Source: Sipunculus nudus
Lineage: Eukaryota; Annelida; Sipuncula; Golfingiida; Sipunculidae
Reading direction: 5' to 3'
DNA length: 64,000 nt
NCBI GenBank assembly: GCA_026874595.1
Contig: CM049317.1
Coordinates: forward strand, 47,454,401-47,518,400
Shown here: piece after piece, positions 8,815 to 40,400 of the stretch
Numbering within the stretch: position 1 is the first letter of the stretch
How the letters are laid out: each line of letters opens with the position of its first letter
Translations under genes and position numbers: made by a program
Notes under the pieces: model-generated
What the model was told of the DNA's origin: nothing
Seen by the model: the letters and a program-made list of their open reading frames with translations, nothing else
Databases searched by the model: none

Positions 8815-9165
8815 TAATACACTTAGTATTTATAATTACAGTAATTAACACATGTATTTATAATTACAGTAATAAATACATATTTGTATGATTACAATAA
8901 CCATTACATGTATTTTTTATTACAGTTATCATTTCATTTATTTATATTTACAGAAGTCATTACATGTATTTATGATAACTGTAATCAAAACATGTATTTA
9001 TTATTACAGTAATCATAACATGTTTATTATTAGAGTAATCCTCACATGTGTTTATAATTACATCAATCATTACTGTTTATTATTACAGTAATTATTACAT
9101 ATGTTTATTATCAGTTGTTATAACACATGTTTACCATTAGAGTAATCATTGCATGTATTTAATAT
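8815..9165 (-). repeat. Degenerate ~30-bp minisatellite directly after the FYCO1 stop, rich in AATAAA
   Basis: About eleven degenerate units built around plus-strand ACATGTATTTATAATTACAG lie immediately 3' of the FYCO1 stop codon at 9,172. Read on the transcribed minus strand, the array contains the poly(A) signal AATAAA six times (plus-strand TTTATT at about 8916, 8937, 8997, 9023, 9076 and 9104) and several ATTTA words. It is therefore probably in the 3' UTR and may supply the cleavage signals. The plus-strand frame across it is not a gene. Confidence 0.75.
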
Positions 9166-9171
9166 CTATCA

Positions 9172-9217
9172 TTATTGCAATATCTTCAGCTCATATGTCA
9201 GCTTCTTAGACATCATT
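9172..9217 (-). CDS. FYCO1: FYCO1 exon 22 (last coding exon, end of GOLD)
   Basis: After a T-rich acceptor ending TTTTCTAG, the exon completes a split Arg codon and encodes [15 protein letters not shown] then TAA. The SKK..Y.L pattern matches the last strand of the vertebrate FYCO1 GOLD domain (S-K-K-V-x-Y-H-L). Incoming phase 2 matches exon 21. The C-terminal tail is shorter than in vertebrates. Confidence 0.85.
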
Positions 9218-12200: not shown

Positions 12201-15200
12201 AAAATCGGACATGAATTAACCAGCAGCATTAAGACTGGAACCTGTGCAGTGAATACGGGTCAACAACTTGGCCATTACCCTGGCCATTACAATGATGTTA
12301 GACAGAATTCACTTGTTCAATATTTTAGATATGATTCCAAAAAGCAAATTTCAGGGTGCAATAGAAGGAACAAAAATTAATTGATTAAATTCTTATCATA
12401 CCTTGGATTCTGTGGCAAAGGCCCAGTCAAGAGTGAGTCCCTGCTGGCTGATCTGTACGACCACAGCATACGACTTCCCTGCTCTGATCCACAACTCTCC
12501 CTCAGGCTCCGCAACTCCCAGCTGTGTGATCTGATCCACTGTGTACGTTATGGAACCCTGAAGACTGTAAAACATAGAGAATGTAACTGAAGACTGACTG
12601 TAAAACATAGTGTATGTAACTGAACTCTGAATATATGATATAGCTTATGTCAAACTACCGTAAAATCTCCACTTAAAACCGCACTTCCGATTAAAACCGC
12701 ACCCAGACTTCGCCGAAATTCCAGGCGAGACACCGCGAGGGGCTCAAATACTAAGAACCCCCCTTTAAAACCGCACCAACTTTCGCTACGGAATGATTTG
12801 ACAAAAGACGCAATCATCTAGAAATGAACACGCGTAGGTTGCGACTCGGCCATTCCTGTCCACTTTAAAAATTCCTTGGGCATTTTATTTAAACACATCA
12901 TAACACTTTTTTGCAGGGTCACTCAAGCATGAAGTTTGGGAAGACGTAAGGGCCGGTGAACCTCTGCCTGTTTATACAGATTTTATATTCCGTGCCGTAT
13001 TCTTGTTTGCTACTGATTTGTCATTATATTTTGGAAAAAATATTCTGCTGATCCATTTCAAGTCACTGTATATTTTAATTCTAAAAGTAATATTTTGAAA
13101 TCTTAATTTTTGATGAAAATTCCATTTTCTGGAATTACTCGGAAGATTCAAATCATTTTCATACCGGTTACTTCGGTATTATCTTCGTCACATCGTACGT
13201 TGACATCGCTCCATGTCACAATTTGCTGGTGCGTTTGAAAACATCGCTGGTCAACTTAACTAAATATCGAAGTACTGAAGTTACCTTTTAGAGATACGCA
13301 CGTATAGGAAACATGACGCTTGAAAACGAGTGATTTTAAGGTAAAATTAAAGTGGCCAGTCCGGGTTAGCAAGTTTTTTTCCTGAATAAAGTTTCCGTGT
13401 GGAGAGCCATTTTGTCAAGGCAGTGTTCGCGCAAGGCACGCTGGGACGAAATAGGTGGCTGTTCTATTTACCACCCACCGCTTACAGCCGTTCAAAATAT
13501 TCTTAGCAGAATACCGGGGTGTTTCAGCACATGGCGGCACTCAAACTTGATTTTAAAACGATCGTCTGCCATTGTGTGACTCTTTACGATGTCAGCTTTT
13601 TATTCATTTTACGTTTTAAACAAATAATCATTGCTAAATAATGCCGCAAATGGGTTTAAAGTAGGCTTTTATTTCAATTTTGCTTGACCATGCCCAACGA
13701 AGTGGACCGCTGTGTGTAACAGCAGGGTTGTTGTAAACGTATTATTTGGTGACAATTACCAAGATTTTATAACAAGTTATATATCACACGAAAACTTATC
13801 AGCAATATTTAATTTATAAATAACAAATAATCGTAAATAATACATTTACACACGGCTCCCATGCATGCTAAGAACAGCCTTCGAAAGTTGCAATATTATC
13901 GCCCACGCGCCGGCGCAAAAACGATGTCTGTCAGGAAGATATTCAGGAAACCCTTCTAGTATAAACCGCACAGTGCTTTCAGGAAATCAACCTGATTTCA
14001 AGATTTTGAATTTCTTGATTAAATCGCGGTTTTAAGTGGAGATTTTACGGTATGAAGGCTGTGTAACATGGTGTATGTCACTGAACTCTGAATGTATAAC
14101 ATAGAGTATGTCACTGAACTCTGAATGTATAACACAGTGTATGTCACTGAACTCGGAATGTATAACACAGTGTATGTCACTGAACTCGGAATGTTTAACA
14201 CAGTGTATGTCACTGAAATCTGAATGTATAACACAGTGTATGTCACTGAACTCTAAATTTATGACATAGCTTATGTCAAACTATGAAAGCTGTGTAACAT
14301 GGTGTATGTCACTGAACTCTGTATAACAAAATGTATGTCACTGAACTCTGACTGTATAACATAGTCACTGTCACAGAACTCTGACTGTATAACATAGTCA
14401 TTGTCCCTGAACTCTGACTGTATAACAGGGTGTATGTCACTGAACTCTGAATGTATTACATAGTGTAAGTCACTGAACTCTGACTGTATAACATGTCCAC
14501 TGTCACTGAACTCTGACTGTATAACAGTCTTTGTCCCTGAACTCTGACTGTATAACTTTGTATGTCACTGAACTCTGAATGTATTACATAGTGTATGTCA
14601 CTGAACTCTGACTGTATAACATAGTAATTGTCCCTGAACTCTGACTGTATAACATGGTCACTGTTACTGAACTCTGACTGTATAACATAGTATATGTCAC
14701 TGAACTCTTGAGTGTATAACATAGAGTATGTCACTGAACTCTGACTGTATAACATAGTAATTGTCCCTGAACTCTGACTGTATAACATGGAGTATGTCAC
14801 TGAACTTTGACTGTATAACAGAGTGGATGTCACTGAACTCTGAATGTATTACATAGTGTATGTCACTGAACTCTTGAGTGTATAATATAGTGTAAGTCAC
14901 TGAACTCTGACTGTATGATATAGTGTATGTCACTGAACTCTGGACTGTATAACATGGTCACTGTCACTGAACTCTGACTGTATAACAGTGTGTATGTCAC
15001 TGAACTCTGAATAATTACACAGTGTATGTCACTGAACTCTTGAGTGTATAATATAGTTTAAGTCACTGAACTCTGACTGCATGATATGGTGTATGTCACT
15101 GAACTCTGGACTGTATAACATGGTCACTGTCACTGGACTCTGACTGTATAACAGTGTGTATGTCACTGAACTCTGAATAATTACACAGTGTATGTCACTG

Positions 15201-18200
15201 AACTCTTGAGTGTATAATATAGTTTAAGTCACTGAACTCTGACTGCATGATATGGTGTATGTCACTGAACTCTGGACTGTATAACATGGTCACTGTCACT
15301 GGACTCTGACTGTATAACAGAGTGTATGCCACTGAACTCTGATTGTATAACATAGTGTATGTCACTGAACTCTGATTGTATAACATAGTGTATAGCACTG
15401 AATTTTAAATTCTATAAGAATTAAGCATTTTTATATATAAATACAGCTAAAAATACTTTTGAAATCATAACCATTCTTTGGCAAATATGTGCAAGAATCT
15501 CACCATTTTGCCCAAACAAGGTAAAACCAGGTATATTACAATACTAACCACCAGGCTACATCCTACCTTACTATTGCATAGCTGTATTGTCAAGGCTTGT
15601 AAGTGGATATCTCACTATTGTGTTGCTGTAATGCAAAGGCTATACAAGTAGGATAACTGATGGTAACACACACACAAGTAGTGTATTGTATGATCCTAAT
15701 TCCTGAAGATTGTATTAAACTTAAAACTTGTGTCTTTCACTTAACTCATTTGAATATATTTTGATATATAATTTGAAAGGAGGATGTTAAAACTAGTAGT
15801 GCTTCAACTGATATTAAATGAGTGAATCAATTTGCTGGGTTCTAATTTGTTTCTGTAATCTACTACTTACTTAGGATCATTCACAACAGAACATTCATGG
15901 ACTGATCTTGACACTTCATCTGGTGTGATCACATCAAACGTCTCATCTCCCCGGACTAGATCACTCCCTCTAAAACAATCAAATAACAGAACATTCATGG
16001 ACTGATCTTGACAATTCATCTGGTGCAATCACGTCAAACATCTCGTCTCCTCTGACTACATCAATCCCTCTAAAACAATCAAATAACAGAGCATTCATGG
16101 ACTGATCTTGATTAAGTTACTTTGTCTGGTATATTTACATCAGGTATTTTTGTTGGCATGTCACACCTAGGGTCGAAATGTTGCTTTCCCACTTTCCTGT
16201 GGGAAAGTTATTATTAGCACGAGAAAGCTATGTCAAATCTTACTTTCCCAGCAGGAAAAGCTCTGAAAACATGCAGAAAATTAAAAAAAAAAACTGTTTG
16301 GGAAATCTTTACAAAAGGTTACTTTCCTGCAGAACTGCATGACACAACATGGACAAGCCCAAACTTGAAATCATATCTATACAAATTTTTTCCAAAGTTC
16401 TCCCTCCCTTTTTTTTGCTAATATTACAGAAAGAAACAGCTATATTTGTCTTTTCAATGGCAACCATGTTTGTTTTTTTTTTTTAATCCTCAGCCCTGAT
16501 GAGGCAAGTTTCCCACTGTACACAAATTTCCCAAGATCCTGTACTTCAACTATCCATGATGATTTACCATCTATTTATGAGTATAATCTATTTTTAAAAT
16601 AAGGGAAATCAATTGTTACCATTGCTTTACCAGGGAAAGCTATAATTTTCAGGGAAAGTAATACAACAAATCACTTTCCTGGCAAGGAAAATAAGATTTT
16701 CTTAACATTTTGACCTCCAATGACTTATACATGTATCATGTACTGCTGATACAGATTCTAATTTCAGTGATATGCCACACCTACAAGGACACTTGACTGA
16801 TGCACTAGCTGTATACTTCTGATGCTTCCAATGGTGGATATATAGAGTGGATAGATCATACCTACTGGGACACATGATCTACCAGTATGTATACCATGTA
16901 AATCTGATACTTCCCATTGCAGTGGGCATAGGACACCTGCAAGGATTCATGACATAGGTTCCATGTTCTACTGATACTTCTAATTACTGTGGATATATCA
17001 CACCTGCAAACATTCATTACCTGCAGTGAAACCTGTCTGAAAGACCATCTGTCTTATTAGACCACCTGTCTATTAAGACCACCCTTGGGTGAACCAAAAG
17101 CATTCACACTGGTCATAACTGACCTTTCTCATAAGACCATCTGTGATGTAAGACTATTTTGGCCAGTCCCATACCCGTCACATAACACAGGTTACACTAT
17201 AAGTCCCATGTACTTCTAGATCTGATTCTTCCCATTACAATTGACATTACTTTGCACACATTTAATGTAACGTTCTCAGATAGACAATGACCGCGTACCT
17301 GTCTGTCACAGCCTGGGCTCCCCGCAGTAGTTCAGCTTTGTACTCATCTGTTTCGTTGATGAAATTGGCTGCACCACCAGCATGGTGACTTGTGCTGCCC
17401 CCTGGTGGCTGACCTGGTGCTACATCAGTCTCAGCTGGATTGGGAAGCAAACTAATTATAATATCAAGTCATATCTGAATTGATTCTGCTTATATATACT
17501 TCAGATTTGAACTGCTATGAAACTGTACATTGCACTGGTGTATGGGTTACAGATGGAGCTAGCAAGGTTAAAAAAATAAATAAATGTTTAATATACATAT
17601 TAATCCTGTTAGTATAACAAGACTGGTCAAAATAAAAAATAAATACAGTTACTGATCAGCCAGATGACATATTCATATATAATATCTTCGGATAGAATAT
17701 CTGCCATGACAACATTATTAAGAATATAGGCTGAGGATACTTAATCTGACTGCATAATGAGTAGATCAGCTGTGTCAATACCAGCCAGGACCACACCTAT
17801 GCCCAAGCACATTAGGTGAACACTGACACCTCTATACGTATCTTAAATGTAAGTACCAGTTTAATTTAGATTACTGAAATTTCATTTTGAAGAGTCCTGA
17901 ACAGTTGCTACCTTGTCTTTACTTAATCTGTTTACTATTTGAAACTGAACTTTAATGTATATCTGAGTCCAGTTTCACTTATCCAAAATAGATCCTCAAG
18001 ATATCTTAAAACTGAATACAGTATATACAGAAACAGGAACTCTGGGCTCTGCCAAGACGGCCTGTCAATTGCCAGCTGGTATATGGACTGCTTAGGCAAT
18101 GATCATGAAACATTGACTCATATTCATTCCACTTGTCAATTGCTTGCAAAGGCCATCTTTGTAATATACAGGTAATAGTGCCCTGGCCTAGGATGTTGTG

Positions 18201-21200
18201 GCCAATATGAGCAAGAAATGTTTATTTCTGCTTCATTCAGGTTTGCTAATTTCATACTGGTAACCTGTTTATGTAATTTGGTGGTGGCCAAGTGGTGGCA
18301 TCATTCTTCTCCTCTGACATATGAGAGTCCATCAAGAGATTAAAGGGACATAATCAGGAGCAATATTATGCTTATCACACAGTCTCAGTATCTCGTATAT
18401 GGCTGTTTAACATCTTAAGCTTGTTATGGGTCTGTGTGTTGGTAAACACGATCCACATGTGTCTGTCTACTATGACAAGGCCGCGTGACCAGAGGTCCGA
18501 ATGTAAGCCTTAACAGGCGGTGTTTCAGCCAACAGGAACATGTATTACGTTTTGTTTTGGCTAAAACAGTCAGGATATCTCCTGATTGACGTGTTGCGGC
18601 AGGGCTATCCCTGCGCTGTGTTTATGTTGACTCCTTTCAGGGGCGGATCCAGGATTTAGGAAAAGGGGGGGTCCAACCCAGAGGACTAATGAAAATCCTA
18701 AAAAAAAGGTCATCACGTCTGGAAATGGGGGGATCTAGGCCGCAAAATTACGTCTAAAGCCCCTTGAAAAAGGTTGCTTCGGGTGAAAAAGGGGGGGTCC
18801 GGACCCCCTGGACCCCCCCTGGATCTGCTTCTGCCTTTGATTGCGCCCGGTCCACTGTTTTAACACTCATGTACAGGAGGAAGCAAACGGTTTCAAGGCA
18901 ATATTTTGGCAGGTACAAATTTATTTTAAAGGGAAGAATCTATTTTTCATGTTAATTCAACATGCTTTGTAGATGATTGGGCCCCTTTAAAAGTAATGAA
19001 GCATTTTACTAGTGGTTAAAAAGCATGAATGTTAAAGCCAAGCTTTCTTCCACACATTCACTTTGACAAAAGCAGTCACTACTACATCACCACTACACCT
19101 AGTTGTTAATTATTTTTATTTACAGGGAAACCTCCATATATGGGCATGATGTGGTAATGTGATAAACAGATTCAGTTCTCTGTAACACTTCTCTAATACA
19201 GGTTCTAATATATGTATAGTAGAACTCTTGTTTTTCCTAAGGCCATTTTAACAAAAAATTGTTTTTCCTAAATTTTCAATTGAGAACTGGAAATTTATTT
19301 CTTTTTTTTTTAAATAATTTAGGAATATAAATACTTCACATGATCATTTGTAATTATAAGTCACCATGGTCTGTAGTCTAGACATCTGCATATCTGAAGC
19401 TTTTGTACTTTAAGCATAAGAGGTTCTTGTGATTAAAGCTCCTAGAAACATTGGCAAAAAACATTAATGCTAAAATCCCTCATCTACAGCGGGTTCATTT
19501 GCTGTGCTTATTTGCAGCATATCTTAAGAGAAAAGAAAAATCAGGACAGAAAAATGAAATTATAATGACTAAAATTCTGAAACTGTGTCATACAAAGAAA
19601 ATAATGACAATAAATTAAAGATGATGTTCTTTGTCCCCCTCCCCCCCCCCCCAAAAAAAAGGTCCTTAACAGAGGTGAGTTATATTACTGTTAGTCAGGC
19701 ATTGATAGGGTTTCACTACAAATAAAATAAAAATTACCTTCACTATCTGTAATTGTGGCAAAACATGAATTATTTCAGATATAAGTAAAGTGCAAAAACA
19801 TTATGCAGAATCAGAATTTACACACTCGTAATTGTGTACAAAATCCATTCGATAATTATTTTTATTCTTAACATATTGTTATCCAATATATAATATTTGC
19901 TGAGCAAAATTATTCAATAACAGGATCAATCCTGGCCTTCAAGGTCCTAAATTTTAAATTTATGTTTTGACTCTTGGAAAAAAAAAATAAACACCGTAAA
20001 CATTGAAACTGAACTTCCAACGATAGATAAGTGTCAACAATCCTGCTGTTACCTTGACCTTTTAGCGCGTTCATAAAATGAGCTCTGTTATTAGTCCATC
20101 CTTTTAAATTTGACTGCCCGTCTGCTTGTGTTACCATACAATCCAGAAGACACCTCAAGACAGGTATGATTACTATGATAACATGATTTATCATGTTTTT
20201 ATGTGACTGAATGTACTGACTTAAATTAACATATTTACAGAAATACCGATGGTGCATCAAATACTGTGGTTGGCTTCATATTCGCAAGGTTAAAATTTCA
20301 CAATTTCCAATTTTTCAATGTTACATGAGGCTTTCATTTGTTTGCTATCTCACAATACAAAAATACTTTACTCCATTATATAACCATTATTAGCTGAATT
20401 AATTATATAAGATATAATGTGCACAAAATCCTCTGAACAAAAAATTTTGTTCATTAATGGCAGATAAATTTCTAAAGATCCTATATAACATTCGAAATAT
20501 CAATCTTTGAACATACATGATATATTTTTCACATAATGTCAAACTTTACTTTTCTTTATTTTATTTTCATGATGATTAAAATCTTGCGAATATCGTGAAT
20601 TTTAAACCCTCCCCAAACAAAACCACAGTAACTGATTAATAATTGATCATTATTTCCTCTCAATTACCCATGTTGTATGTGTTGGTTTGTATGTGTTGGT
20701 TTACCTGTGTTGTATGTGTTGGTTTACCAGTATTGTATGTGTTGGTTTACCTGTGTTGTATGTGTTTGTTTGTATGTGTTGGTTTACCTGTGTTGGTTTG
20801 TATGTATTTGTTTACCTGTGTTGGTTTACCTGTGTTGTATGTGTTCGTTTACCAGTGTTGTATGTGTTGGTTTACCTGTGTTGTATGTGTTGGTTTGTAT
20901 GTGTTGGTTTACCTGTGTTGTATGTGATGGTTTACCCATGTTGTATGTGTTGGTTTGTATGTGTTGGTTTACCTGTGTCGTATGTGTTGGTTTACCAGTG
21001 TTGTATGTGATGGTTTACCTGTGTTGTATGTGTTTGTTTTTATGTGTTGGTTTACCTGTGTTGGTTTGTATGTATTTGTTTACCTGTGTTGTATGTGTTG
21101 GTTTACCAGTGTTGTATGTGTTGGTTTACCTGTGTTGTATGCGTTTGTTTGTATGTGTTGGTTTACCTGTGTTGGTTTGTATGTATTTGTCTACCTGTGT

Positions 21201-24200
21201 TGTATGTGCTGGTTTAGCTGTGTTGGTTTACCTGTGTTGTATGTGTTGGTTTGTATGTATTTGTTTACCTGTGTTGTATGTGTTGGTTTACCTGTGTCGT
21301 ATGTGTTGGTTTACCAGTGTTGTATGTGTTGGTTTACCTGTGTTGTGTGTGTTCGTTTTCCTGTGTTCTGTGTGTTGGTTTACCTGTGTTGTGTGTGTTT
21401 GTTTACCTGTGTTCTGTGTGTTGGTTTACCTGTGTTGTATGTGTTGGTTTACCTGTGTTGTGTGTGTTTGTTTACCTGTGTTCTGTGTGTTCATTTACCT
21501 TCATTGTATGTGTTAGTTTACCTGTGTTCTGTATGTTGGTTTGTATGTATTTGTTTACCTGTGTTGTATGTGTTGGCTTACCTGTGTCGTATGTGTTGGT
21601 TTACCTGTGTTGTATGTGTTGGTTTTTGTGTGTTCTGTGTGTTGGTTTACCTGCGTTGTATGTGTTGTTTTACCTGTGCTTGCCGTGCTGAGCAGACCGT
21701 CTCTGTGGTTATTCCTCGTCTGTCGCTGAGGTAGTGAGTCGTCGTCTGTGTCATCGCTCTGACTCTCTGACACCTGGCCTGTGCTCTTTCTTCCTGCACA
21801 CTCGTTACATGCCCTCTCCTTTTTACTGTTGACAAGAAAAAATATAATCAATTAATGCTATTCAAACTTTATCTACAATACATAATGTTATCTATATAAG
21901 GTCAGGACGGGTGCAACAAAAGGTTCATAGCCTTCCATATGGGCTGAGTGATGCTTGAAAAACTAAAATAAATTAAGGACCTGGTTACATGTAGAGACAC
22001 AAAAAACTGACTCTTAATAGTATATAAGTAATAGATTTTTTAACCTTTACATCAGATGAAAAGTTTGGCTTAAACTGCATCTACAATATTTTTAAAGAAC
22101 TTGCTTCTGTGACCTTGACCTTAGACCTTGTGACCTAACAGTCTACAGAGTTCCTACTCAGTAGTGAACAATATAGAAGTGAGGTCTGAAACCAACCAGT
22201 CAAACTTGAGCTATTTGTGGTCAATGTGTTCATAATTTATAACATACTGATCACTACTACCACCACCTATCAGTAGCTTCTGAAATGATTGCTCATTCTT
22301 AGCTGGAAAGCATTCATAACCATATGGTTTCAAGTTTGCTCCAATTTTCACCAACTGCTATTATGCAAATTTGTAGCCATTGCAAATAAGCAGACAACCA
22401 CAGAAATCAAGAATTCAGAGCAAATCTCTGAGGCTCTACTGGGATTTCATCATTTTGCCTTTGAGGCTCTCATGGGGCTAAGACTGGTCTCATTCTGCTC
22501 TAAAGCCCAGTGCCTGAACTGCTCAGCTATGTCCTACACAGAGTTAGAAAAGTTCACAATTTTTTTTAAAGATTTTTTTTTTACTGGAGGTAACTATTTT
22601 TCAAGGTGTTCCCTGAGCTGCTGTCTAGATATGCCAGTTCACCTTTAAATTTTGCTCTTCTAGGAGATTTCAATTTCCACTTCGACGTTTGTTCTGATCA
22701 GCAGGTAAATCGTCTGAAAACCATGCTGAGCGATCACAGCCTCACTCAGTTGGTCGATTTGTCGACACATAAACACAGACATATCCTCGACTGGGTGGTT
22801 GTACCCAGTGGCTCAAGCATGTTGTCCCTGGAGGGAGTCTATGACTGCGCCGACTTGTCTGATCACAAAGTCATTATCTGCATGTTATCCTTCGCGAAAC
22901 CACGTCCAAGGAAAAGACCCTTGACTTCGAGGAATATCCGCGCGATTTCACTACCTGATTTCCGGTCTGATATACAGATGATGACTAGATCTGCCGGAAC
23001 GGACAGGGTGTATGTTGCCGACCTGGACATGTTTGTCGACAAGTTTAATGTCGGCCTGAAGGATATCCTGGACCGGCACGCACCGGCTGTGACCAGACTG
23101 GTCAGAGACTGACCTTTGGCCCCCTGGTTGCCTGACGACGTCAGAATGGCCCGTCGTAAAAGAAGGAGAGCTGAAAGATGATGGAGAAGGACCGGTCTGT
23201 CTGTCCATAGAGAAATTTTCGTCAGTGAAAGGGCTGCGGTGAAAGCTGTAATTCATTGTACGAAGAGCAAGTTCTACATGGACATGATTTCCACAAGTTC
23301 TTCATCCAGGAAGCTGTTCTCTGTTACCAGTGAACTTTTGGGGAAGTCTCGAACAACACGTCTTCCAACTCATCTGCCTCGCTGTGACCTCCCAAATAGC
23401 TTTTGTTATTATTTCTCGGCGAAGATTGAACGCATTCGTCTTGAACTTGACTCTGTTGCATGTTCGCCCCCTAAATTTAATGTTTAGGATGGCCCCTCAT
23501 TGTCCTGTTTTGCCCCAGTAACTGATCAGGATATCATTAGCATCATAATGGCGTCGCCAACCAAAAGCTCTACACTCGACCCAATGCCCACGGCTCTTTT
23601 GAAGCAGTGCATTAATGATATTGTTCCACTGATTACTTCAATTGTTAACATGTCTCTCTCTACAGGTTCAGTTCCGTCTCAATTTAAACACGCTGTAGTG
23701 ACTCCACTGTTGAAAAAGCAAGGGTTAGATCCGAATGATTTAAAAAATTATAGGCCAGTCTCTAACCTTCCATTTGTTTCAAAAATCCTTGAAAAGATTG
23801 TTCTAAAGCAGTTACAATGTCATCTTCATAACAATAATTTAATTGAAATCCATCAATCGGCTTACAGAAGGCATCACAGCACAGAGACCGCTGTGTTAAG
23901 TGTTTTGGATGGTCTTCTTACGGCGACAGACAAGAAACACGTTTCTTTGATAGCTTTGTTAGACCTAAGCGCGGTGTTTGACACGCTAGATCATTCAATA
24001 TTGCTTAAAAGACTTCAACTGACATTTGGTATACATGACACAGTACTTTCATGGTTTTCCTCATATCTGAGAAACCGCTCCCAAGCTGTTATTGTTGACG
24101 GTAGATTGTCTGACCCATGCTCTCTATTGTACGGTGTCCCCCAGGGTTCCGTGTTGGGGCCTGTACTTTTCACTTTATATTCACCACCTTTGTCTGATAT

Positions 24201-27200: not shown

Positions 27201-28436
27201 AGTATGCATTTGTCAATATTTGATTTATACTCCCTAAGGAATATAAGAATATAAGATAAAATTACCTGGTAAACAAAATATCATAGGCCTTAATCACTCT
27301 TCTACATAAGATTGTGTCTGAACTGTATAGGTATCGCCTTACTGGATTTGTTTCTGTTCATTGTCATTGGGTCTGTTTTTGTGCAGTGTGTTAGTATATG
27401 TGTATCGTTTCACATGTTCATTATTGGTACTGTCCATATGTTGTTTCATGTGATGTATTCAATAAATAAAAAAAGGGTATATGAACAAACTGTAGCTGGT
27501 TACAAAATTTTGAGTTTTTAGTTTTCAATGTTGCAAAGAGAAAAGGTGACAATTACCAGGTACTTAAGGACAGACAAACAATAAATCAGGAGCGTTTGTT
27601 TTAATTCATTTGGCTGACCCATTACCTGCCAGTCAACATACAGTAAATACCACATTCCTCAGACCTATATTTCACCTCACCTTATATTTAATGACCAAGT
27701 CTCTTTCTTCATGAAGCATTGATTTATTCTGCAATAATATAAATTTTTATGATAAAAATATGGTAAATGCATAACACACTGACATTCATTATATATAATT
27801 TGGTTGGAAGAAAATGTTTCCTTTAGAGAAAAGTATTAAAAGAAAGGGCCAAGTTTCCTTAATCACTTAGGCTAAACACAATCTTCAATATTCATCACAC
27901 AGTGTTATCACTTTAAAATGAGTACATTTATAATCAAAAAAATTATCAGTACAACATGACCTGCCTTCAGTGTCTTGATTTTAGCTTATGTGAAGCAAAC
28001 TGCAGTGCAGATGCAAAATATGCAATCACCAGCCTGAAGTAAAACTAGTTTAATATAATCAGGATTAGATGCAAACTATCGCTCCAGCTGCCTACCCTCT
28101 TCAGTTCATCATGTAATAGTGTACACTCCTCTTCTCGCTGGCTCAGCGACTGGCGCAGCTCTTCAAGCTGAAACAGATGTCCTTCAGCTGAAATACTAGG
28201 ACATGGCTTCATACTAAAACAAGTCTCGATTTCTTGTTTTAGTGCCATAGATGAAATACAATACACAGCTTTTCATGTTACTCCCTTTCATACTTCTATG
28301 AGGAAATGATCATGAAATTACATCACAATAAATAATTTGCAGCCTTTACTTATTGAACAATTTGTATTTATTCTGAGACATCCTAAATGGTAGGTAGCTC
28401 TTTTAAAAATTATAAATAAAATAATTTATATTTAAT

Positions 28437-28495
<59 letters not shown>

Positions 28496-31400
28496 TATAT
28501 ATTTATTATTATTATTATTATTTTTATCATCATCAACCAAACATTTAAAGTATCTAACTCTAAACAAAAACACACCAATTTTACATTTGTCAAAACAAAA
28601 GATAAAATCTGAGCTATATATTAATGGTTAAGTCAACTGATTTGGGAAGATGTCACATGACCTCTTTTAAAACATGTCACTTGTTTCTACCTCTCGCCAG
28701 AGTTCCTGTTGTTCTTGTGCCCGCTGACCTCGTAGTTCATGCAGCTCTTCCTCCAGGCTCTCAATAAGGCCTTCCTGGTCATTCAGTTTCTGGGTGAGTG
28801 CATCTAGGTCAGTGCGCTGGTTACTGTAGGTCTAGGAAGGTCAGAGGTCAAGGCAGGTGAAGGTCAAGCAAGTAGAGATAAAGTTTGGGATATTATCCAG
28901 GACTTAAGCTGCATACCCTATACTATGAAAAACTTAGGAAGTAAACCTGTATTATTAATTTTTCTAAGGAACAAAATGTAAATGTTGCAATTTCAGCAAG
29001 AAGTTTTTATTATATCTGGTCTGATGTTATAAGATCTTGCACACTGTGCTGTTATTTTGTCATGACCACTGTATTTTTAAATGACTTTTTATACACTGGT
29101 TGGCTTGGAAAAATTTTTGTACAAAAAAAATGAAAATTAGTGCTGCTGAAGAGATAACTGTTCTTACATTACAACTGTTTTATTTGCTACATTCTATTTA
29201 TATAATTCAAAGGTATTTCAGATGTGCATAAACTCAGTTCTTCCAATGACTTAAGGAGTTGGTATGCAGGTGGTGAAAATACATGTTTAGAAGCACAATG
29301 TGTCATATAAGGTGGAGCATAGTCATCATAATTACAGGTAGGATACCAACGTAGATTTAATATCTTTTAAATCATTTATGGTATAATTTTATTATGCTTA
29401 TGTATTTTTATAAATACATGATGACATGTAACAACATCATGTAAGAATTTATGTTGATTTATTAATTATTTTTTTATGTAGGCATAATAGCATAAAAAAA
29501 CATAAATGTCTGGTGAAGAACTGAATTTCATTACCAATCAAATAAATAAAATTAATGTCCTGCATTTATAACATGATTTATGTCAGCCACACATACACTC
29601 TCAACCCCTTTTCCTAACTGCACATTAATTGTGTGGGTTCATTATCTAATTCATAACTAATTTCAGCAATCATGCTGTCCATTCACATCAGATTGTTTTG
29701 ATAATCTGGTAAAAAAAGACAGGAAACTGGCTAAATAAACTGGGCAGAGTTAGGGAAGCAAGTGCTTAGCACTAAAACCAGACTTACCTTGATGGCGGTC
29801 TTATGAGCCATCTGCTCAGAGCTGAGTTTAAACTTGAGAGCTGACACTTCAGTTTCGTAAGCGTCTTTACAGCTGTCAAGCTTCTGCGACAGCTCCATCA
29901 GCTTCTGTTCTACCAGCCGTTTCTCTTCCATTTCAGCCTCTTGTGCAGCTTTTAATTTCTGAAGATTAATCAAAAGGTCAGATTTTTCTTCAAGTTCAAG
30001 AGCCCTGAGTGATTTAACTTTCTCTAGTTCTTCCTGTAGAGACTTCACCTGGCCAGCCAGAGTGTCTCTGTCAGTCTCAACATCAGCAAGCTTGCTGCGG
30101 ACTTCATCACTTGACTGATGCAGAGTTGCTGTTGCTCTTTCACTCTCATGTTTCATTTTCTGTAGATCAACGTTAAGTTCGTTACATCTTGTCTGAAGCT
30201 CTAATAATTCTGCTTCAGATTTTACTTTTTCTTCTTTCGACGACTCTAAAGACATCGCAAGTTCTTTCACCTCTGCCTCTTTAATCACTACTTCATTTTT
30301 CACTAAAGCGAGGTCATTTTTTAAAGTACTTATCTGTTCACTACAAGTCTGATTTATCTCTTGTAAGTCTTCCTTATCTTTTCTCAAAGTAGAAATTTTA
30401 CTCTCTTGGTCTGCCATACAGGTTCTCAAAGTATCCCTTTCCTCAACTGTAGCGGTGACAGTTGTCATAAGTGCTTTCAGTTCATCTTGTATTTTATCCT
30501 TTTCCAAAGCTAGCTGTTTGTTTTCCATCTCTAAGTTTTTAATGTTTTCCTGGAACTTAACTTCTGTTTCCTTTAACGTATTATCACTTTCCACTTTCAG
30601 TTCATCTCTTCTGTTTAGTTCCTGCTCTAGCTCCCCAACCAGTGTCTTCTGAGACTCCAGTTCATTTGCCACAGCACTTTTGCTTTGTATTTCTTCCTGT
30701 AATTTCTCCTGAATGTCAGTGAGCTGGCTGAGGTGATCCTCCTGTAACCTTTGCTCCTTACTTTCAAACTTTTCTCTCAGATCATGCCCTTCTTTTATGG
30801 ACTTCTCTAATTTGTCAGACAAGGCTGACTTTTCCACCTTTACATTTAACACCTCCTCCTGAAGGGTGTGCACTAGGTTTTGTGCTTTTGACAGTGCAAC
30901 CTGGGATTGTTCAAGATTTTCCTTTATTATTCCTATTTCCATTTTTAATTTTGTATTTTCTGTAGAGAGCTCACCCTGTCTTTCTTTAACTTCCATCAGC
31001 TCCTCTATTAATCTTTCATTTGAGCCTGTTGTGCTTTCAATGGTATCGTCTCTTTCAGCTATGATCTGATGCAGCTGTTTCACTTCACCCATCAGGTTGC
31101 TGACAGTTTTCTGTAATGTTTCTTCCCCATGTTCCTTCTGTTCCAGTTCCTTGGTTTTGTTTTCTAAATCAATTTTCAGAACCTCAACCTTTGACCCAAG
31201 GTCAGCAGCCTCCATTTCATTTTGACTGATAAAAGTTTTAAGTTCTGCAGCCTCAAGATGACTGTGAGTTAATTCTGTGGTCATTTCTATAATCTTCTGC
31301 TCAGCTGCCTCCACCTGCAAAAAAAGCAAATATATTAAAATTCATACAAAATCATAGTTTAAGATGACTACAATCTGATCACAGCCATAAAGTGAGAATC

Positions 31401-34400
31401 CTATACTTATTCTAAACCTTATTTAATGCTAATGTGTTTGAACTATGGATAGTCACAAATCTAAGTCCAAGACTTGTTGGACAGATTGTATAGGTAATAT
31501 TATAAACATGGCCTACAGGCCTAATGCAAACCTGTGCAATGGGATATACATCAGGTATAATGCTTCCATGGTGGACAATTACTTTGCAGGTACAAGTTTG
31601 ACATGTATATGTACAATGCACATACTAAACATTTTGAACCGGAGTCCAAGCACCAATTACTAAAATGTCACTGCTGAAATACTGGCATGCATAATTTCAG
31701 GCAGATACTTCAAACCACTCTTGGACTATGTGCACAGAAGCCACAGATGCATGAAACAATTGTAGGTGGCACCACAAGTCTTGTATACAACAAAACTACC
31801 CGAGATGTATTGACATGCATAATTTCAGGCTGATATGTAAAATTACTCCTGAGAAATAAGCAGGGACATATACTGTGCAAAAATTATTGTAGGTAGTGCC
31901 ACCAGTCCTTGTACAGGTCAAAGCTATCCAAGATGTAAACATATGCCCAAATTCAGGCTGGTATATCAAATCCCTCGTGAGATATAAGAAGGCACATACA
32001 CTTTGCAAAAATCATTGTACATGGCGACACCAGTCTTGTGTACAAGAAAGCCATCAAAGATGCATGGACAAGTCAAAATATAAATAAAACAAACTTCTCT
32101 TGAGTCAAGTGCACTGGGCTGACCGAGCTCAAGTGAGGAAGGCAGTTGCCCTGAGTGAACCAGAACATAAAGCCAACTGCAGCTACTGCACTGAGTGAAC
32201 TCTTGACTTGTTGCCTAATCTGACACAGTTGGCAGTCTGCCAAAGCTATAAATAGATACTGACTGACCTTTGGCATTTTGCAAGACAGTTGGCAGTCTGA
32301 AATTATGGGTTAATGTAGTGATGACCGATGACCCCTGTACAAAAAAAGGTCAATGCAGGTTGTGCCACAAACCCCAATTTCAAATTTAACATATGTGACC
32401 AACATTTGCATAAAATTTGGTGATGAATGCTCCAGCCATTTTTGAAATTATAATTTCAGTATGCTTTTTTGAAGAAATGACTATGTTCAGCTTCCTGTAA
32501 CTCGGCCAAAAATCACTGAACTGGAACCATTCTAACAAACGTGAAAGAGATTGATTCTGGGATTATTGAACAATTTGGCTGGACAGTTTCATCAGAGATT
32601 TTAAAAGGCTTTTTAGCTTTTTTCCTATAAAATCTAGGCAAATGCAGATAGCATATAATAAGCAGAATCCGATGGAATTTTTAAGATGACTGATTTTTTG
32701 CATAAAACTTGGTGATGCTAGCACCTGCCATTTTTGAGATGCCATACCATTGCATTAGCTCAAAGGTTCACTTGAATGTACTCTTATTGTTCCTCTGAGT
32801 TCCGTATCTGTTTTCCTGAGTGCTCCACCCGTATCTGTAAGTGCTCCAACTGTTTCCTAAATGCTTCACCTGTTTCTATAAGTGCTCCAGCTGTTTCCTA
32901 AATGCTCCATCTGTTTCTCAAGTGCTTCACCTGTTTTTTAAGTGCTCTGCCCATTTTATAAGTGCTCCACCATTTTTATTAAGTGCTCCACCTGTTTTTT
33001 AATTGGCCCACCTGTTCTTTTATGGGTTCAACCTGTTTTTAAGTGCCCTACCTGTTTTCTGTGTTGGATGACCTGTGCTCTACCTGTTTTCTTGGTTGAA
33101 TGACCTGATCTCTACCTGTTCTCTGAGTTGGATAACCTGTATATTAACTGTTTTCTGGGTTGAATGACCTGATCTCTACCTGTTTTTTTTAGTTGAATGA
33201 CCTTTGCTTTACCTGTTTTCTGAGTTGCATGACCTGTGCTCCACCTGCTTTCTATGTTGGATGACCTGTGCTCTACCTGTTTTATGAGTTGGATGACCTG
33301 TGCTCCACCTGTTTTCTGAGTTGGATGACCTGTGTTCTACCTGTTTCTGAGTTGAATGCCCTGTGCTCTACCTGTTTTTTTAGTTGAATGACCTTTGCTC
33401 TACCTGTTTTCTGAGTTGCATGACCTATGCTCCACCTGTTTTCTGAGTTGGATGACCTGTGCTCCACCTGTTTTCTGTGTTGGTTGACCTTTGCTCTACC
33501 TGTTTTATGAGTTGCATGATCTGTGCCCCACCTGTTTTTTTGGGGTTGAATAACCTTTGCTCTACCTGTTTTCTGAGTTGCATGACCTGTGCTCTACCTG
33601 TTTTTCTGAGTTGCATGACCTTTGCTCTACCTGTTTTATGAGTTACATGACCTGTGCTCTACCTGTTTTCTGAGTTGCATGACCTGTGCTCTTCCTGTTT
33701 TCTGAGTTGCATGACCTTTGCTCTACCTGTTTCCTGAGTTGCATGACCTGTGCTCTACCTGTTTTTTAGTTGAATGACCTTTGCTCTACCTGTTTTCTGA
33801 GTTGCATGACCTGTTCTCTACCTGCTTTCTTAGTTGCAGACCTTTGCTCTACCTGTTTTCTGAGTTGCGTACCTTTGCTCCACCTGTTTTATAAATTGCA
33901 TGACCTGTGCTCTACATGTTTTCTGAGTTGAATGACCTGTGCTCCACCTGTTTTCTGAGTTGCATGATCTGTGTTCTACCTGTTTCCTGAGTTGATTGCC
34001 CTGTGCTCTGCCTGTTTTCTGTGTTGGTTGACCTTTGCTCTACCTGTTTTTTTAGTTGAATGTTATTTGCTCTACCTGTTTTCTGAGTTGCATGACCTGT
34101 GTTCCAACTGTTTTCTGAGTTGGATGACCTGTGCTTCACCTGTTTTCTGTGTTGGTTGACCTTTGCTCTACCTGTTTTCTGAGTTGCATGACCTGTGCCC
34201 CACCTGTTTTTTTTGGGGTTGAATAACTTTTGCTCTACCTGTTTTCTGTGTTGGTTGACCTTTGCTCTACCTGTTTTTTTAGTTGAATGTTATTTGCTCT
34301 ACCTGTTTTCTGAGTTGCATGACCTGTGTTCCAACTGTTTTCTGAGTTGGATGACCTGTGCTCCACCTGTTTTCTGTGTTGGTTGACCTTTGCTCTACCT

Positions 34401-37400
34401 GTTTTCTGAGTTGCATGAACTGTACTCTACCTGCTTTCTATGTTGGATGACCTGTGCTCTACATGTTATCTGAGTTGGATGACCTATGCTCCACCTGTTT
34501 TCTGAGTTGCATGACCTGTGTTCTACCTGTTTCCTGAGTTGAATGCCCTGTGCTCTACCTGTTTTTTTCAGTTGAATGACCTTTGCTCTACCTGTTTTCT
34601 GAGTTGCATGACCTGTTTTCCACCTGTTTTCTGAGTTGGATGACCTGTGCTCCACATGTTTTCTGTGTTGGTTGACCTTTGCTCTACCTGTTTTCTGAGT
34701 TGCATGACCTGTGCCCCACCTGTTTTTTGGGGTTGAATGACCTTTGCTCTACCTGTTTTCTGAGTTGCATGAACTGTGCTCTACCTGTTTTCTGAGTTGC
34801 AGGACCTGATTCTCTGCCTGTTTTCTGAGTAGCATGACCTGTGCTCTACCTGTTTTCTGAGTTGCACGACCTGTGCTCCACCTGTTTTCTGTGTTGGTTG
34901 ACCTTTGCTCTACCTGTTTTCTGAGTTGCATGACCTGTGCTCTATCTGTTTTCTGAGTTGAATGAACTTTGCTCTACCTGTTTTCTGAGTTGCATGACCT
35001 GATCTCTAACTGTTTTCTGAGTTGGATGACCTGTGCTCTTCCTGTTTTCTGAGTTGCATGACCTGTGCTCTACCTGTTTTCTGAATTGCACGACCTTTGC
35101 TCTACCTGTTGTCTGAGTTGCATGACCTGTGCTCTATCTGTTTTCTGAGTTGTATGACCTGTTCTCTACCTGTTTTCTGAGTTGCATGACCTGTGCTCTC
35201 CCTGTTTTCTGAGTTGCATGACCTGTGCTCTACCTGTTTTTTTAGTTGAATGACCTTTGTTCTACCTCTTTTCTGAGTTGAATGACCTGTGCTCTACCTG
35301 ATTTCTGAGTTGAATGACCTTTGTTCTACCTGTTTCCTGAGTTGCATGACCTGTGCTGTACCTGTTTTCTGAGTTTAATGACCTTTGTTCTACCTGTTTT
35401 CTGAGTTGCATGACCTGTGCTTCCTCCAGTCTCAGCTGGTTTTCCAGGAAGTTCTTCTCCTGCATCACGGCCTTGACCTTGCCCACAAGAGGATTGTCCT
35501 TTCCTTCCTGTCAATTATTAACATCAATCAGATACAAATAATTCAGATTATATAATAACAACTGCACTGGGAATGTATGAACCTCTATCTATTATAGAAT
35601 AAAGAAGAAATTAGAAATTAGCTGAAGTAAAATAATACACATTAAATTATTTATTGTTGTAAATAAAATGCTTTTAAATTTTAATATTTTCTATTTTCAA
35701 ATGAGCATTAACTGCTGATAAGTACATATTGCACCGTGTAATACATGAAAATTGTGACCTGAGACCAATTAATAATACAATAAGGAAAAACATTAAGGGG
35801 AGTTGTGGGGGACAAAAAGTAATAGCACATGTAGGTACATGAAATGATTAATAATCAATTTTTGATTGCTTTTTTTCTCAATCATCAAATAATTTTACAA
35901 ATGATGCCTTACACTAGTCCTGGTCAGTAATACCTTACCTCACTGTCCAGGGTAACACCATACCTCACTGTTCAGGGTAACACCATACCTCACTGTCCAG
36001 GGTAACACCATACCTCACTGTCCAGGGTAACACCATACCTCACTGTTCAGGGTAACACCATACCTCACTGTCCAGGGTAACACCATACCTCACTGTCCAG
36101 GGTAAAAACCATACCTCACTGTCCAGGGTAACACCATTCCTCACTGTCCAGGGTAACACCATACCTCACTGTTCAGGGTAACACCATACCTCACTGTTCA
36201 GGGTAACACCATACCTCACTGTTCAGGGTAACACCATACCTCAATGTTCAGGGTAACACCATACCTCACTGTTCAGGATTACACTATAGCTCACTGTCCA
36301 GGGTAACACCTTACCTCACTGTTCAGGGTAACACCTTACCTCACTGTTCAGGGTAACACCTTACCTCACTGTTCAGGGTAACACCATACCTCACTGTTCA
36401 GGGTAAAACCTTACCTCACTGTTCAGGGTAACACCTTACCTCAATGTTCAGGGTAACACCTTACCTCACTGTTCAGGGTAACACCTTATCTCACTGTTCA
36501 GGGTAACATCATACCTCACTGTTCAGGATTACACTATAGCTCACTGTCCAGGGTAACACCTTACCTTACTGTTCAGGGTAACACCATACCTCACTGTTCA
36601 GGGTAACACCTTACCTTACTGTTCAGGGTAACACCATACCTCACTGTTCAGGGTAACACCTTACCTCACTGTTCAGGGTAACACCTTACCTCACTGTTCA
36701 GGGTTACACCTTACCTCACTGTTCAGGGTAACACCTTACCTCACTGTTCAGGGTAACACCTTACCTCACTGTTCAGGGTAACACCATACCTTACTGTTCA
36801 GGGTAACACCATACCTCACTGTTCAGGGTAACATCTTACCTCACTGTTCAGGGTAACACCTTACCTCACTGTTCATGGTAACACCATACCTCATTATTCA
36901 GGGTAACACCTTACCTTACTGTTCAGGGTAACACCATACCTCACTGTTCAGGGTAACACCATACCTCACTGTTCAGGGTAACACCATACCTCACTGTTCA
37001 GGGTAACATCTTACCTTACTGTTCAGGGTAACACCATACCTCACTGTTCAGGGTAACATCTTACCTCACTGTTCAGGGTAACACCTTACCTCACTGTTCA
37101 GGGTAACATCTTACCTCACTGTTCAGGGTAACACCTTACCTCACTGTTCAGGGTAACACCTTACCTCACTGTTCAGAGTAACACCTTACCTTACTGTTCA
37201 GGGTAACACCATACCTCACTGTTCAGGGTAACATCTTACCTCACTGTTCAGGGTAACACCTTACCTCACTGTTCAGGGTAACATCTTACCTCACTGTTCA
37301 GGGTAACACCTTACCTCACTGTTCAGGGTAACACCTTACCTCACTGTTCAGGGTAACACCTTACCTTACTGTTCATGGTAACACCATACCTCACTGTTCA

Positions 37401-40400
37401 GGGTAACATCTTACCTCACTGTTCAGGGTAACACCTTACCTCACTGTTCAGGGTAACATCTTACCTCACTGTTCAGGGTAACACCTTACCTCACTGTTCA
37501 GGGTAACACCTTACCTCACTGTTCAGGGTAATACCTTACCTCACTGTTCAGGTTAACACCTTACCTCACTGTTCAGGGTAGCAGCATCCACTGTCTCAAG
37601 TTGACTGAGAACTTTCTTCAAACCCGTTATCTCAGTTTCTAGATGTGTGATTTCTTCTTCTCGTTTTCCCAGTTTTTCTTCCATCATACCATACAGTTTT
37701 TCACTTTCATTTAGCTGACTTTCAAGTAATGCTACCCGCCCTTCCACTTCAACTTTTGATTTCTTTTCTGCCACCAATTTATCTTCAGTATCCCTCTGTT
37801 TTGATGCAAAGATTTCATTTTCGTCCTCCATCATTTTTAGTTTCTTTTGTAGTTCTGATATGTATTCTTGCTTTTTTTTTAAAGCTGTTTCATGTTCTTC
37901 CTCTGCAGTGTCATGCTTGACCTTGAAATTATCATAAGCCTCCTGAAGAGTTCTTAATTCTTTCACTTTTTCGTGAACATTAATTAACAGAGATTCCTCA
38001 GATTTCTTCAAATTATCAAACTCTATTTCCTTTTGAGCAAGTACAGATTTAACATCTTGTAAGTTTTTCTCCACTTCAAAAAGTTTCTCTTCATGAACAG
38101 GTTTTTCAATATGAGTATCTTTAATTTGTGCCAACTGCTCATTAACTGCTGCCATATTTCTCACATGTTCCTCACATGTCTGTTCCAGATTTTCAATTTT
38201 CAACTGCAATTGTGTGTTCATCCCTTTGTATTGAATGACCTTCTCTTTTGCAGTTGTAGCAATCTGAGCACCTTTAATTTGAGCAAAATCAGACATTTCT
38301 TGGAGTTTTCCATTGGTTTCTTTGAGTTTTGCGATAACCGTGTCCTTTTTCTCCAGCTGGTTACATAACTCATTAATTTTGTTAGCATTCTCAATATGTT
38401 TCTTCAAACTGGACTCTTTATCTTGCTGCAAGTTTGTGTTTTTATCCGTCAGCACTTCAGTGTTTTGTTTTAGCTCAGCTATTGTCAGTCCAAGCATTTT
38501 GACGATTTCACATCTCTTGGTATCCACCTGCTTACCAAGTTCTATCTCCCTCAGTAACTGTTCCACCTGCTTTTTCTGGGCTATGCATAAATCCTCACTT
38601 ACTTGTAGTCTGACTTTAAGGCCCACTGATTCTGTCACATATCCCTCTAGCTGGTCCTTATTTCCGAGGCTCGCCTCATCCAGCCTTTTCTGCAGTTCAT
38701 CAATTTTGCCATCAGCTTCACTGAGTTTAGACTGGTACTCTCCCTCCTTTTCCTTCCATGATTCTTCTCTTATTGCTAGTTCCTTTTGTGCGGTATTGAT
38801 TCTGAAAGAAAACAGATACACAAAAACGTTAAAACACTGAGGGATGCTGTTCCCCAAGGCAGGAACGCATACAATGGCCTGCAGGTTATTAATACAACTA
38901 CATTTGAATTAAATACTTTGGGATTTAAAATTCAAATGGTGCTTCATGAATAATATACATCTTATTAGTTTCATTTATAATCTACAGTTTGTTTCTGTAT
39001 GGCGTCTGTAGACCTATCACTGCTGTACAAAGAGACAAAACCATGCATGTTGTTACTATGATACTGCAAGTATAACTTAATTGACATGAGAACTGAATAC
39101 TTCTTTTTACAAAAACATATGCTGAGACAAATGATTTAGACCACCCAAAAATAATTCTATCATGGAAATGCCTCTCATGTCTTCATTTATTTTAGTTTAT
39201 TATGAATGTCAGCTCAGTCCATTGAGTCCATTGAACAAGTTACATTAATGTGGTCTTAGCTTTAGAGCGTGTCCATTTTCTGTAATGATTCTGAGAGAAG
39301 TTAACACTCTTCCAACACTCAGTTCCACCTGTGAGTGCCTATTGAAATTAGGCAATTATTCCATTAGACTTAAATATTATCACATCCTTCAACACTTAAC
39401 TAGATGAGGGAAATATTATTATCACATACTTCAACACTTAACTAGATGAGGGACTAAAAGTGGAGATGAGAAATTTTGTGAAATGAACCAACATTTATAT
39501 TTTAACCAAGAGCACTGCAAACGTACATAATACACCCATCTTGTATATAGTGACCTCTGACCTCATAAAATATGCGTTAACTTTGATGAGAAGGTAATTT
39601 AGGTGAGAAACTCTATAGGTAAATATGTATAATGAGTTTAATGAAATCCATAGGATTTTGGGTAAGTCATCAAGGTGCCTCCAAAGTGCGGTGAAATCTG
39701 ACCTCATTCAATATGCATTGATTTTGCTTGAAATCAAACTTAGGTGAGATATTTTATTGATTAACATTTCTGATGAGTTTTATCAAAATCCTTCATATTC
39801 TTCATAAGTTATCACGGCGGCATGATAAAGTAGCTTAGTGACCTATGACCTTATTAAATATGGGTTGATGTTTCCCATAATTAAACCCTGGGAAGATTAT
39901 CTGTTGGTAAGTAGTTATGGTGAGTTTCATGAAAATCCATCAAAGCCCCGGTTTAAGTTATGGTGGTGACACTAAAAGTTAAAGACGGACGGACAGACGG
40001 ATGGTGGGAATTCCATAATTCTCCCATTAAATGACAGGTACATAAAAACCTTTCTAGCTTCCACTGGGCTTTAAAGTGGAGTGACATGGTGTCTCCCCTC
40101 AATGGCCATTCCCCTTTTAATAAATGTTTTTGTCTAGATTATTCATAACTTTATAAAACCAAGGATTTAAAATGAAAGCCCTGCCAGCTAGTCTTTGCTG
40201 CTCAGCTGAGTGCTAACTGCTATTAAGACATCTTAATGACGCAGTTCGCTGAAGTTTGTCTCAGAGTGACAAAACCAGAAGCTGAGCAGTAAACCACAGG
40301 AGTGACACTGACTAGATTTATTAATGCTCAGAATGTTTGGTTTGTCAGGAATTAAGGGCAACAGGTATATTTAGAGAGGTCTTATGTTGGGAATTCACTG

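What the first reader, a model, noticed from the sequence alone, without database searches (positions are those of the whole stretch)
8815..37585. One gene, many minisatellites seeded on its exon-intron borders
Within FYCO1, tandem arrays adjoin the donors of exons 8, 9, 15 and 17 and the acceptor of exon 20. In each, the unit spans the border: some exonic bases plus the splice site plus some intronic bases. Exon 19 with its acceptor is itself duplicated, and an array of poly(A) signals follows the stop. Units differ in sequence and length (25, 32, 50-55, 23, about 33, 100, about 30 bp), so these are independent events at one locus, not one repeat family spreading. Inference: a local process repeatedly duplicates processing-signal DNA here, or selection tolerates or favours arrays of decoy splice sites. 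A link to the known idea that introns can arise by tandem duplication of AGGT-bearing segments is possible. I know of no described locus with this many.
Basis: partly seen in the sequence, partly recalled or inferred. Interest (0 to 1): 0.87.

Follow-up and report, generated by a model that had tools for sequence, protein, structure and literature searches.

The report
Minisatellites spanning FYCO1 splice junctions
Several FYCO1 exon edges in this animal genome are repeated in tandem, up to about 70 times, into the neighbouring introns; this is a little-known but already described kind of repeat ('mirage'), it also occurs in other genes of the same genome, and it raises the question of how splicing picks the one correct site among many look-alikes.

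Summary
I rebuilt exons 2-22 of FYCO1 (minus strand, 1,682 codons, all introns GT-AG, phases fitting). Four arrays cross donors (exons 8, 9, 15, 17) and two cross acceptors (exons 19, 20); each unit holds exonic and intronic bases. The array after the stop spans no border. Six of 13 arrays in the gene cross a junction against 0.82 expected, but the locus was picked for this.

The scope is wrong. Six of 54 other host loci carry the same kind of array in myosin, dynein and CCT genes. Enrichment at junctions is mixed: 4 of 17 arrays against 1.79 expected (P 0.07), no excess by coverage (4 of 184 against 31 of 719 windows), and 19 donor-word arrays against 4 and 9 for two control words. Decoy splice dinucleotides are not specially conserved; 3 of 262 decoy donors would keep the frame.

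Such arrays are known from amphioxus as 'mirages' (PMC3087553). Best reading: ordinary minisatellite growth over a junction, tolerated because the exon-flush site is used. New member of a known kind.

The parts
37565..38801 (-).
   Evidence: phase 2 in, phase 0 out, GT-AG
35927..37580 (-). 25-bp x66 array spanning the exon 8 donor; 16 exonic bases in the first unit
   Evidence: TRF, reading, single place in the genome
35394..35507 (-). FYCO1 exon 9, donor CAG|GTAGAA
   Evidence: phase 0 in and out
32812..35421 (-). 32-bp x74 array (distal part 20/41 bp) spanning the exon 9 donor; 28 exonic bases
   Evidence: TRF, reading
26193..26331 (-). FYCO1 exon 15, first half of the FYVE finger, donor AAG|GTCAGT
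   Evidence: FYVE domain joined RK|HHC
26029..26236 (-). 55-bp x3.9 array spanning the exon 15 donor; 44 exonic bases
   Evidence: TRF, reading
21674..21825 (-). FYCO1 exon 17, donor CAG|GTAAAA
   Evidence: phase fit
20664..21682 (-). 23-bp array, about 45 copies, spanning the exon 17 donor; 9 exonic bases
   Evidence: TRF, reading, copy count
15871..15969 (-). FYCO1 exon 19, the copy that fits both phases
15885..16111 (-). 100-bp x2.3 duplication of acceptor plus body of exon 19
   Evidence: TRF, reading
12402..12564 (-). FYCO1 exon 20, acceptor TTTTACAG|TCTT
   Evidence: phase fit
12558..12650 (-). 33-bp x2.5, acceptor-spanning end of the exon 20 array; 7 exonic bases
   Evidence: TRF, reading
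14059..15402 (-). main block of the exon 20 array, 33 bp x41, 82% identical to the block at the exon
   Evidence: blastn of the two blocks
12656..14052 (.). inserted element with inverted ends (TACCGTAAAATC...) that splits the exon 20 array; related copy in L032 (93% over 592 bp)
8826..9161 (-). 28-bp x12 array with 6 AATAAA just after the stop
9172..9217 (-). FYCO1 last exon with stop TAA
41822..43064 (-). 33-bp x38 mid-intron array, not at a junction (internal comparison)
28828..28872 (-). 17-bp x2.8 degenerate array abutting the exon 11 acceptor (not counted as spanning)

Best explanation
These are 'mirage'-type minisatellites: short tandem duplications that happened to straddle a splice junction and then grew into the intron by ordinary repeat expansion. 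Growth into the exon is removed by selection on the protein, so the copy flush with the exon stays intact and is the one used; the other copies are spare splice sites in the intron that drift neutrally. The genome makes many minisatellites, so the same happens in other genes; FYCO1 lies in the tail. Shown: unit composition, exon frame, occurrence in other genes, lack of special conservation of decoys. Inferred: the growth mechanism and the actual use of the exon-flush site.
For: Junction-spanning units with exon ends fixed by phase, and at the FYVE finger by the domain. Same kind of array in L012, L023, L028, L029, L050, L080, two of them with the exon join checked against solved myosins. Donors and acceptors are both hit. 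Interior arrays exist too (41822-43064; L028 493-1252; 31 of 719 interior windows lie in duplicated DNA). GT or AG columns in six long junction arrays rank among ordinary columns: fraction of column pairs kept at least as well 0.68, 0.50, 0.96, 0.88, 0.44, 0.29. Decoy donors can be as good as or better than the flush site (58 of 123 better at exon 9, 28 of 33 at exon 17, 24 of 24 equal in L029), while 3 of 262 would give an in-frame, stop-free exon. In amphioxus, Adh3 data and globin RT-PCR suggested that mirages do not disturb regular splicing (PMC3087553, passages).
Against: FYCO1 itself is richer than the sample rate predicts (0.91 expected; 5 by the same criterion, P 0.0025; 6 by the array criterion, P 4e-4, before allowing for the choice of locus), and the word test shows 2-5 times more donor-bearing arrays than controls, which plain random seeding does not explain. 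No RNA was seen.
Confidence: 0.72

Rival explanations
1. A mutational process is aimed at splice junctions (for example through AGGT microhomology, or transcription- and splicing-linked breaks), so duplications start there more often than elsewhere.
For: 6 of 13 FYCO1 arrays against 0.82 expected; 19 donor-word arrays against 4 (reversed word) and 9 (dinucleotide shuffle) over the same listed stretch of the genome, binomial P 0.004 against the reversed word after weighting by single counts.
Against: Unbiased sample only 4 of 17 against 1.79, weaker still with another null; by coverage junction windows are not more duplicated than interior ones, in the sample (4 of 184 against 31 of 719; 6 against 49 with a looser threshold) or in FYCO1 (5 of 42 against 23 of 176). 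Donors and acceptors are both hit, so no donor-specific process.
Confidence: 0.18
2. Arrays of decoy splice sites are kept by selection, as regulators or as a buffer against loss of the site.
For: Decoy donors are strong and numerous; human IFI6 uses two downstream repeat units as donors (PMC4526556, passage).
Against: Splice dinucleotides are not better kept than other columns; 3 of 262 decoy donors and 1 of 11 decoy acceptors would keep the frame.
Confidence: 0.05
3. The arrays are remains of intron creation by tandem duplication of AGGT-bearing exon segments.
For: Some units hold AGGT; amphioxus authors proposed such a route (PMC3087553). By eye the start of the exon 9 array (GTAGAACA) and the start of exon 10 (GTGGAGGCA) are weakly alike; not tested.
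Against: At the exon 8/9 intron the two ends look unrelated by eye. Not formally tested: no related species could be compared.
Confidence: 0.03
4. Assembly or annotation artefact.
For: No RNA or reads available here.
Against: Copies differ from one another (neighbour identity 0.77-0.96), one array is split by an unrelated inserted element, exon ends fit phase and domains.
Confidence: 0.02

Closest known systems
'Mirages' of amphioxus (Adh3; globin genes BflGb6, BflGb9)
   Same: minisatellite-like tandem repeats whose unit spans an exon-intron border, at either end of an exon, with unit lengths differing from array to array (10-72 bp in Adh3, 150-160 bp in globins; PMC3087553, passages read)
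   Different: another animal; here up to 66-74 copies (6 and 3 in BflGb6), six junctions in one gene, and occurrence sampled across other genes; the number of arrays in Adh3 is not in the passages I read
Human IFI6 (6-16) minisatellite
   Same: tandem units that serve as splice donors next to an exon
   Different: 12-bp unit (recalled); two downstream units are used as donors in IFI6 (PMC4526556 passage; Turri 1995 itself not held), whereas here use of inner copies would almost always break the frame
Human factor VII intron 7 37-bp repeat (recalled only; one search found no paper)
   Same: repeat said to start at the exon 7 donor
   Different: few copies; recalled only
Intron gain by tandem duplication (Rogers model; potato RdRp case PMC4974935, start of abstract seen in a listing)
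   Same: duplication of segments bearing AG/GT
   Different: here existing introns gain copies at one end; no new intron is shown

Membership tests
mirage (junction-spanning minisatellite) | tandem units that repeat an exon edge with its splice site | tested here: met
   six arrays in FYCO1, six in other loci
mirage (junction-spanning minisatellite) | donor and acceptor ends both affected | tested here: met
   4 donors and 2 acceptors in FYCO1; 3 and 3 in the sample
mirage (junction-spanning minisatellite) | units unrelated between arrays (local origin) | tested here: met
   units differ; 14 units compared pairwise on both strands: 9 of 182 comparisons at shuffle p 0.01 or less, best local score 23 (about a dozen bases), as shared splice words may give; the 25-bp array found at one place only, the other arrays not searched genome-wide
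mirage (junction-spanning minisatellite) | regular splicing at the exon-flush site | not testable with these tools
   no RNA; the frame demands it
mirage (junction-spanning minisatellite) | length instability between haplotypes | not testable with these tools
   one assembly
dispersed satellite or transposon family | the same unit at many places | tested here: not met
   for the exon 8 array only
IFI6-like donor array used in alternative splicing | inner copies used as donors giving productive mRNA | tested here: inconclusive
   3 of 262 decoys could be productive; use not observable

The most novel reading that the evidence does not exclude
In this lineage tandem duplication starts preferentially at splice junctions genome-wide, giving thousands of exon edges followed by arrays of comparable splice sites, and the spliceosome takes the exon-flush copy every time.
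Probability: 0.2. Interest if true: 0.75.

Novelty: new member of a known kind. Interest (0 to 1): 0.42.

Why it matters
Natural arrays with many equal or better donors, of which nearly only the exon-flush one gives a proper protein, are a ready experiment on how splice sites are chosen. If border-seeded arrays prove more frequent than chance in several phyla, they would also mark a mutational bias at exon edges that bears on splice-site turnover and intron evolution, and they are a trap for gene prediction.

Tried and rejected
Genome-wide enrichment was tried four ways. (1) TRF arrays against Pfam-anchored junctions with random placement: 4 of 19 strict arrays against 2.0 expected, P 0.12, and 4 of 36 against 3.01, P 0.35. 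(2) An edge-based null, leaving out L044 and L045 (single-exon copies): 4 of 17 against 1.79, P 0.07. L023 and L028 count as misses in both because their exons were recognised only after the arrays were seen. (3) Duplication of 30-bp windows: 4 of 184 junction windows against 31 of 719 interior ones (6 against 49 with a looser threshold); FYCO1 5 of 42 against 23 of 176: no excess. (4) Three copies of the donor word CAGGTAAGT with gaps of 8-38 bp: 265 matches in all; in the listed part (to C9:11.65 Mb; the list is cut at 100 rows) I counted 19 arrays by eye, against 4 for the reversed word (133 matches in all) and 9 for a dinucleotide-preserving shuffle (175 matches in all, counting C7:27.69-27.77 Mb as one). 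Singles 15,332 against 12,946 for the first two; no single count for the shuffle.

Polarity of growth: identity to consensus falls away from the exon in the 25-bp array (rho -0.39, P 0.001) but not significantly in the other four donor arrays, and it also falls in a mid-intron array (L028 493-1252, rho -0.63, P 0.004). A seed-at-the-exon growth model was dropped. Sense against antisense donor content of units: sense higher in 11 of 19 sample arrays and 5 of 6 FYCO1 units; inconclusive. A 29-residue peptide of the L028 exon alone found no solved relative; the longer join did. One search read L028, L029 and L050 in wrong frames or from intronic starts; one search repeats them; the donor total of 3 of 262 stands, acceptors become 1 of 11. 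One search translated a GroEL in the wrong frame and was replaced. Papers: ten searches; the original amphioxus, IFI6 and human tandem-array intron papers are not held. (0 papers) and the listing (11 papers, titles and starts of abstracts, one read in passages) named no such array in molluscs; this says little, given the library.
Full report
What was given.

The gene. The window lies in a 1.43-Gb assembly of 153 contigs. The ends carry RUN, FYVE and GOLD_2 domains, and the RUN part is closest among solved proteins to FYCO1 (7bqi). Exon 1 was not identified.

The arrays. TRF and direct reading confirm arrays across the donors of exons 8 (25 bp x66), 9 (32 bp x74 and a degenerate tail), 15 (55 bp x3.9, in the FYVE finger..FRLRK|HHC..) and 17 (23 bp, about 45 copies), and across the acceptors of exons 19 (100 bp x2.3) and 20 (33 bp). 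The exon 20 array is two blocks, 12558-12650 and 14059-15402, 82% alike, parted by an element of about 1.4 kb with inverted ends whose relative lies in L032; the array is thus probably older than the insertion. The 28-bp array after the stop is rich in AATAAA (6 against 1.85 in shuffles) but starts 5-10 bp past the stop. A 33-bp x38 array at 41822-43064 is mid-intron. The 25-bp array occurs at one place in the genome; a pairwise comparison of 14 units showed only short likenesses (9 of 182 at shuffle p 0.01 or less).

Chance within the gene. Of 13 arrays of period 15 or more, 6 cross one of 42 junctions; random placement with at most 60 bp of exon gives 0.82 (P 7e-5); with at least 2.5 copies and 60 bp, 5 of 7 against 0.50 (P 3e-5). 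The gene was brought to me because of this, so these are not genome-wide P values. By coverage there is no excess: 5 of 42 junction windows against 23 of 176 interior windows lie in duplicated DNA.

Other genes. Pfam searches of the same genome placed exons of myosin heads (75 matches), CCT chaperonins (63 matches, some on bacterial contigs) and dynein (84 matches; 5 of 18 wanted regions could be fetched). I hold 54 host loci, 183 kb, with 36 array clusters. Six show the same anatomy: donor arrays in L029 (myosin, 36 bp x28..NSILTG|), L028 (myosin, about 21 bp x53..GVKDYK|) and L080 (dynein, 92 bp x2.9..KDPH|); acceptor arrays in L012 (myosin, 82 bp x5.8, exon with ERNYHIFY), L023 (myosin I, 31 bp x9.4, |VDYFNNK) and L050 (CCT, about 57-60 bp x2.8). 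The exon joins of L023 and L028 align with solved myosins (in L028 the best alignment covers residues 6-102 of 112 and one other, 7kch, 9-111). An array in L079 abuts an acceptor without clearly spanning it; one of L081 and two others of L079 lie near (14-70 bp) but not on a border.

Is it more than chance genome-wide? Mixed. With Pfam-anchored junctions alone, 4 of 17 arrays span one against 1.79 (P 0.07); another null gives P 0.12 and 0.35. By coverage, 4 of 184 junction windows and 31 of 719 interior windows are duplicated nearby; arrays cannot extend far into exons, so this measure is biased against junctions, but it shows that interiors have plenty of arrays. Over the listed part of the genome, arrays holding three copies of the donor word CAGGTAAGT number 19, against 4 for the reversed word and 9 for a shuffle, with single counts of 15,332 and 12,946 for the first two. 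I conclude that the kind of array is widespread (about 2% of sampled junctions), that an excess at borders of two- to fivefold is possible but not proven, and that FYCO1 is a tail case.

How it probably works. The copy flush with the exon is the one that fits the phase of the neighbouring exon at the six FYCO1 junctions. By a weight matrix recalled from memory, many inner donors score as high as the flush one or higher (at exon 8, of 37 within 2 bits or better, 23 equal and 6 better), yet only 3 of 262 would give an in-frame exon without stop, and 1 of 11 inner acceptors; at exon 20 no inner acceptor comes within 2 bits. In six long junction arrays the GT or AG columns are kept no better than other columns; in the exon 17 and exon 20 arrays they are among the worst kept. 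So the inner copies look neutral, and the flush copy is presumably held by selection on the protein. Growth by slippage or unequal exchange is inferred. The unresolved point is how splicing takes the first of dozens of comparable donors.

Known kind. Tandem repeats spanning exon-intron borders were named 'mirages' in amphioxus Adh3 and found again in globin genes, where 6 and 3 units were seen in two haplotypes and RT-PCR suggested regular splicing (PMC3087553, passages; the reference to Canestro 2002 seen, paper not held). Human IFI6 uses two downstream repeat units as donors (PMC4526556, passage). The present case is the same kind in another animal, with more copies than the passages I read state. 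An earthworm paper with minisatellites in an intron (PMC12783039, passages) does not describe border-spanning units in what I read.

Verdict. Observation confirmed; scope and novelty claim corrected; selection on decoys not supported; aimed mutation possible.

Noticed in passing
G000 contigs C61, C62, C66, C72, C73, C74, C75, C89, C99 (loci L034-L043): The assembly holds apparently bacterial contigs with groEL regions 96.8-99.9% alike (GC 0.41); the protein is at most 69% identical to the 80 best hits kept from GTDB genomes (capped list), so perhaps a poorly represented bacterium in several strains or copies lives with, or contaminates, the animal.
   Followed up: partly
window 1191-4174: Satellite of 338-bp period; related sequence in L015 (166-bp period) and L062, so a dispersed family, unlike the exon 8 junction array.
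   Followed up: partly
window 23488-25074, plus strand: 529-codon open frame inside a FYCO1 intron that reads like a reverse transcriptase of a LINE (by eye; no search).
   Followed up: no
G000:C2:44849337-44854198: Several matches to the same stretch of the myosin head (about 90-153) in a row in one gene; possibly mutually exclusive exons.
   Followed up: no
L045 2395-2780: An apparently single-exon CCT-like copy has an 84-bp x4.7 repeat that overlaps its coding match.
   Followed up: no
window 14059-15402: In the exon 20 array the last base of the acceptor AG is G in only 56% of copies, the least conserved column of that unit.
   Followed up: no
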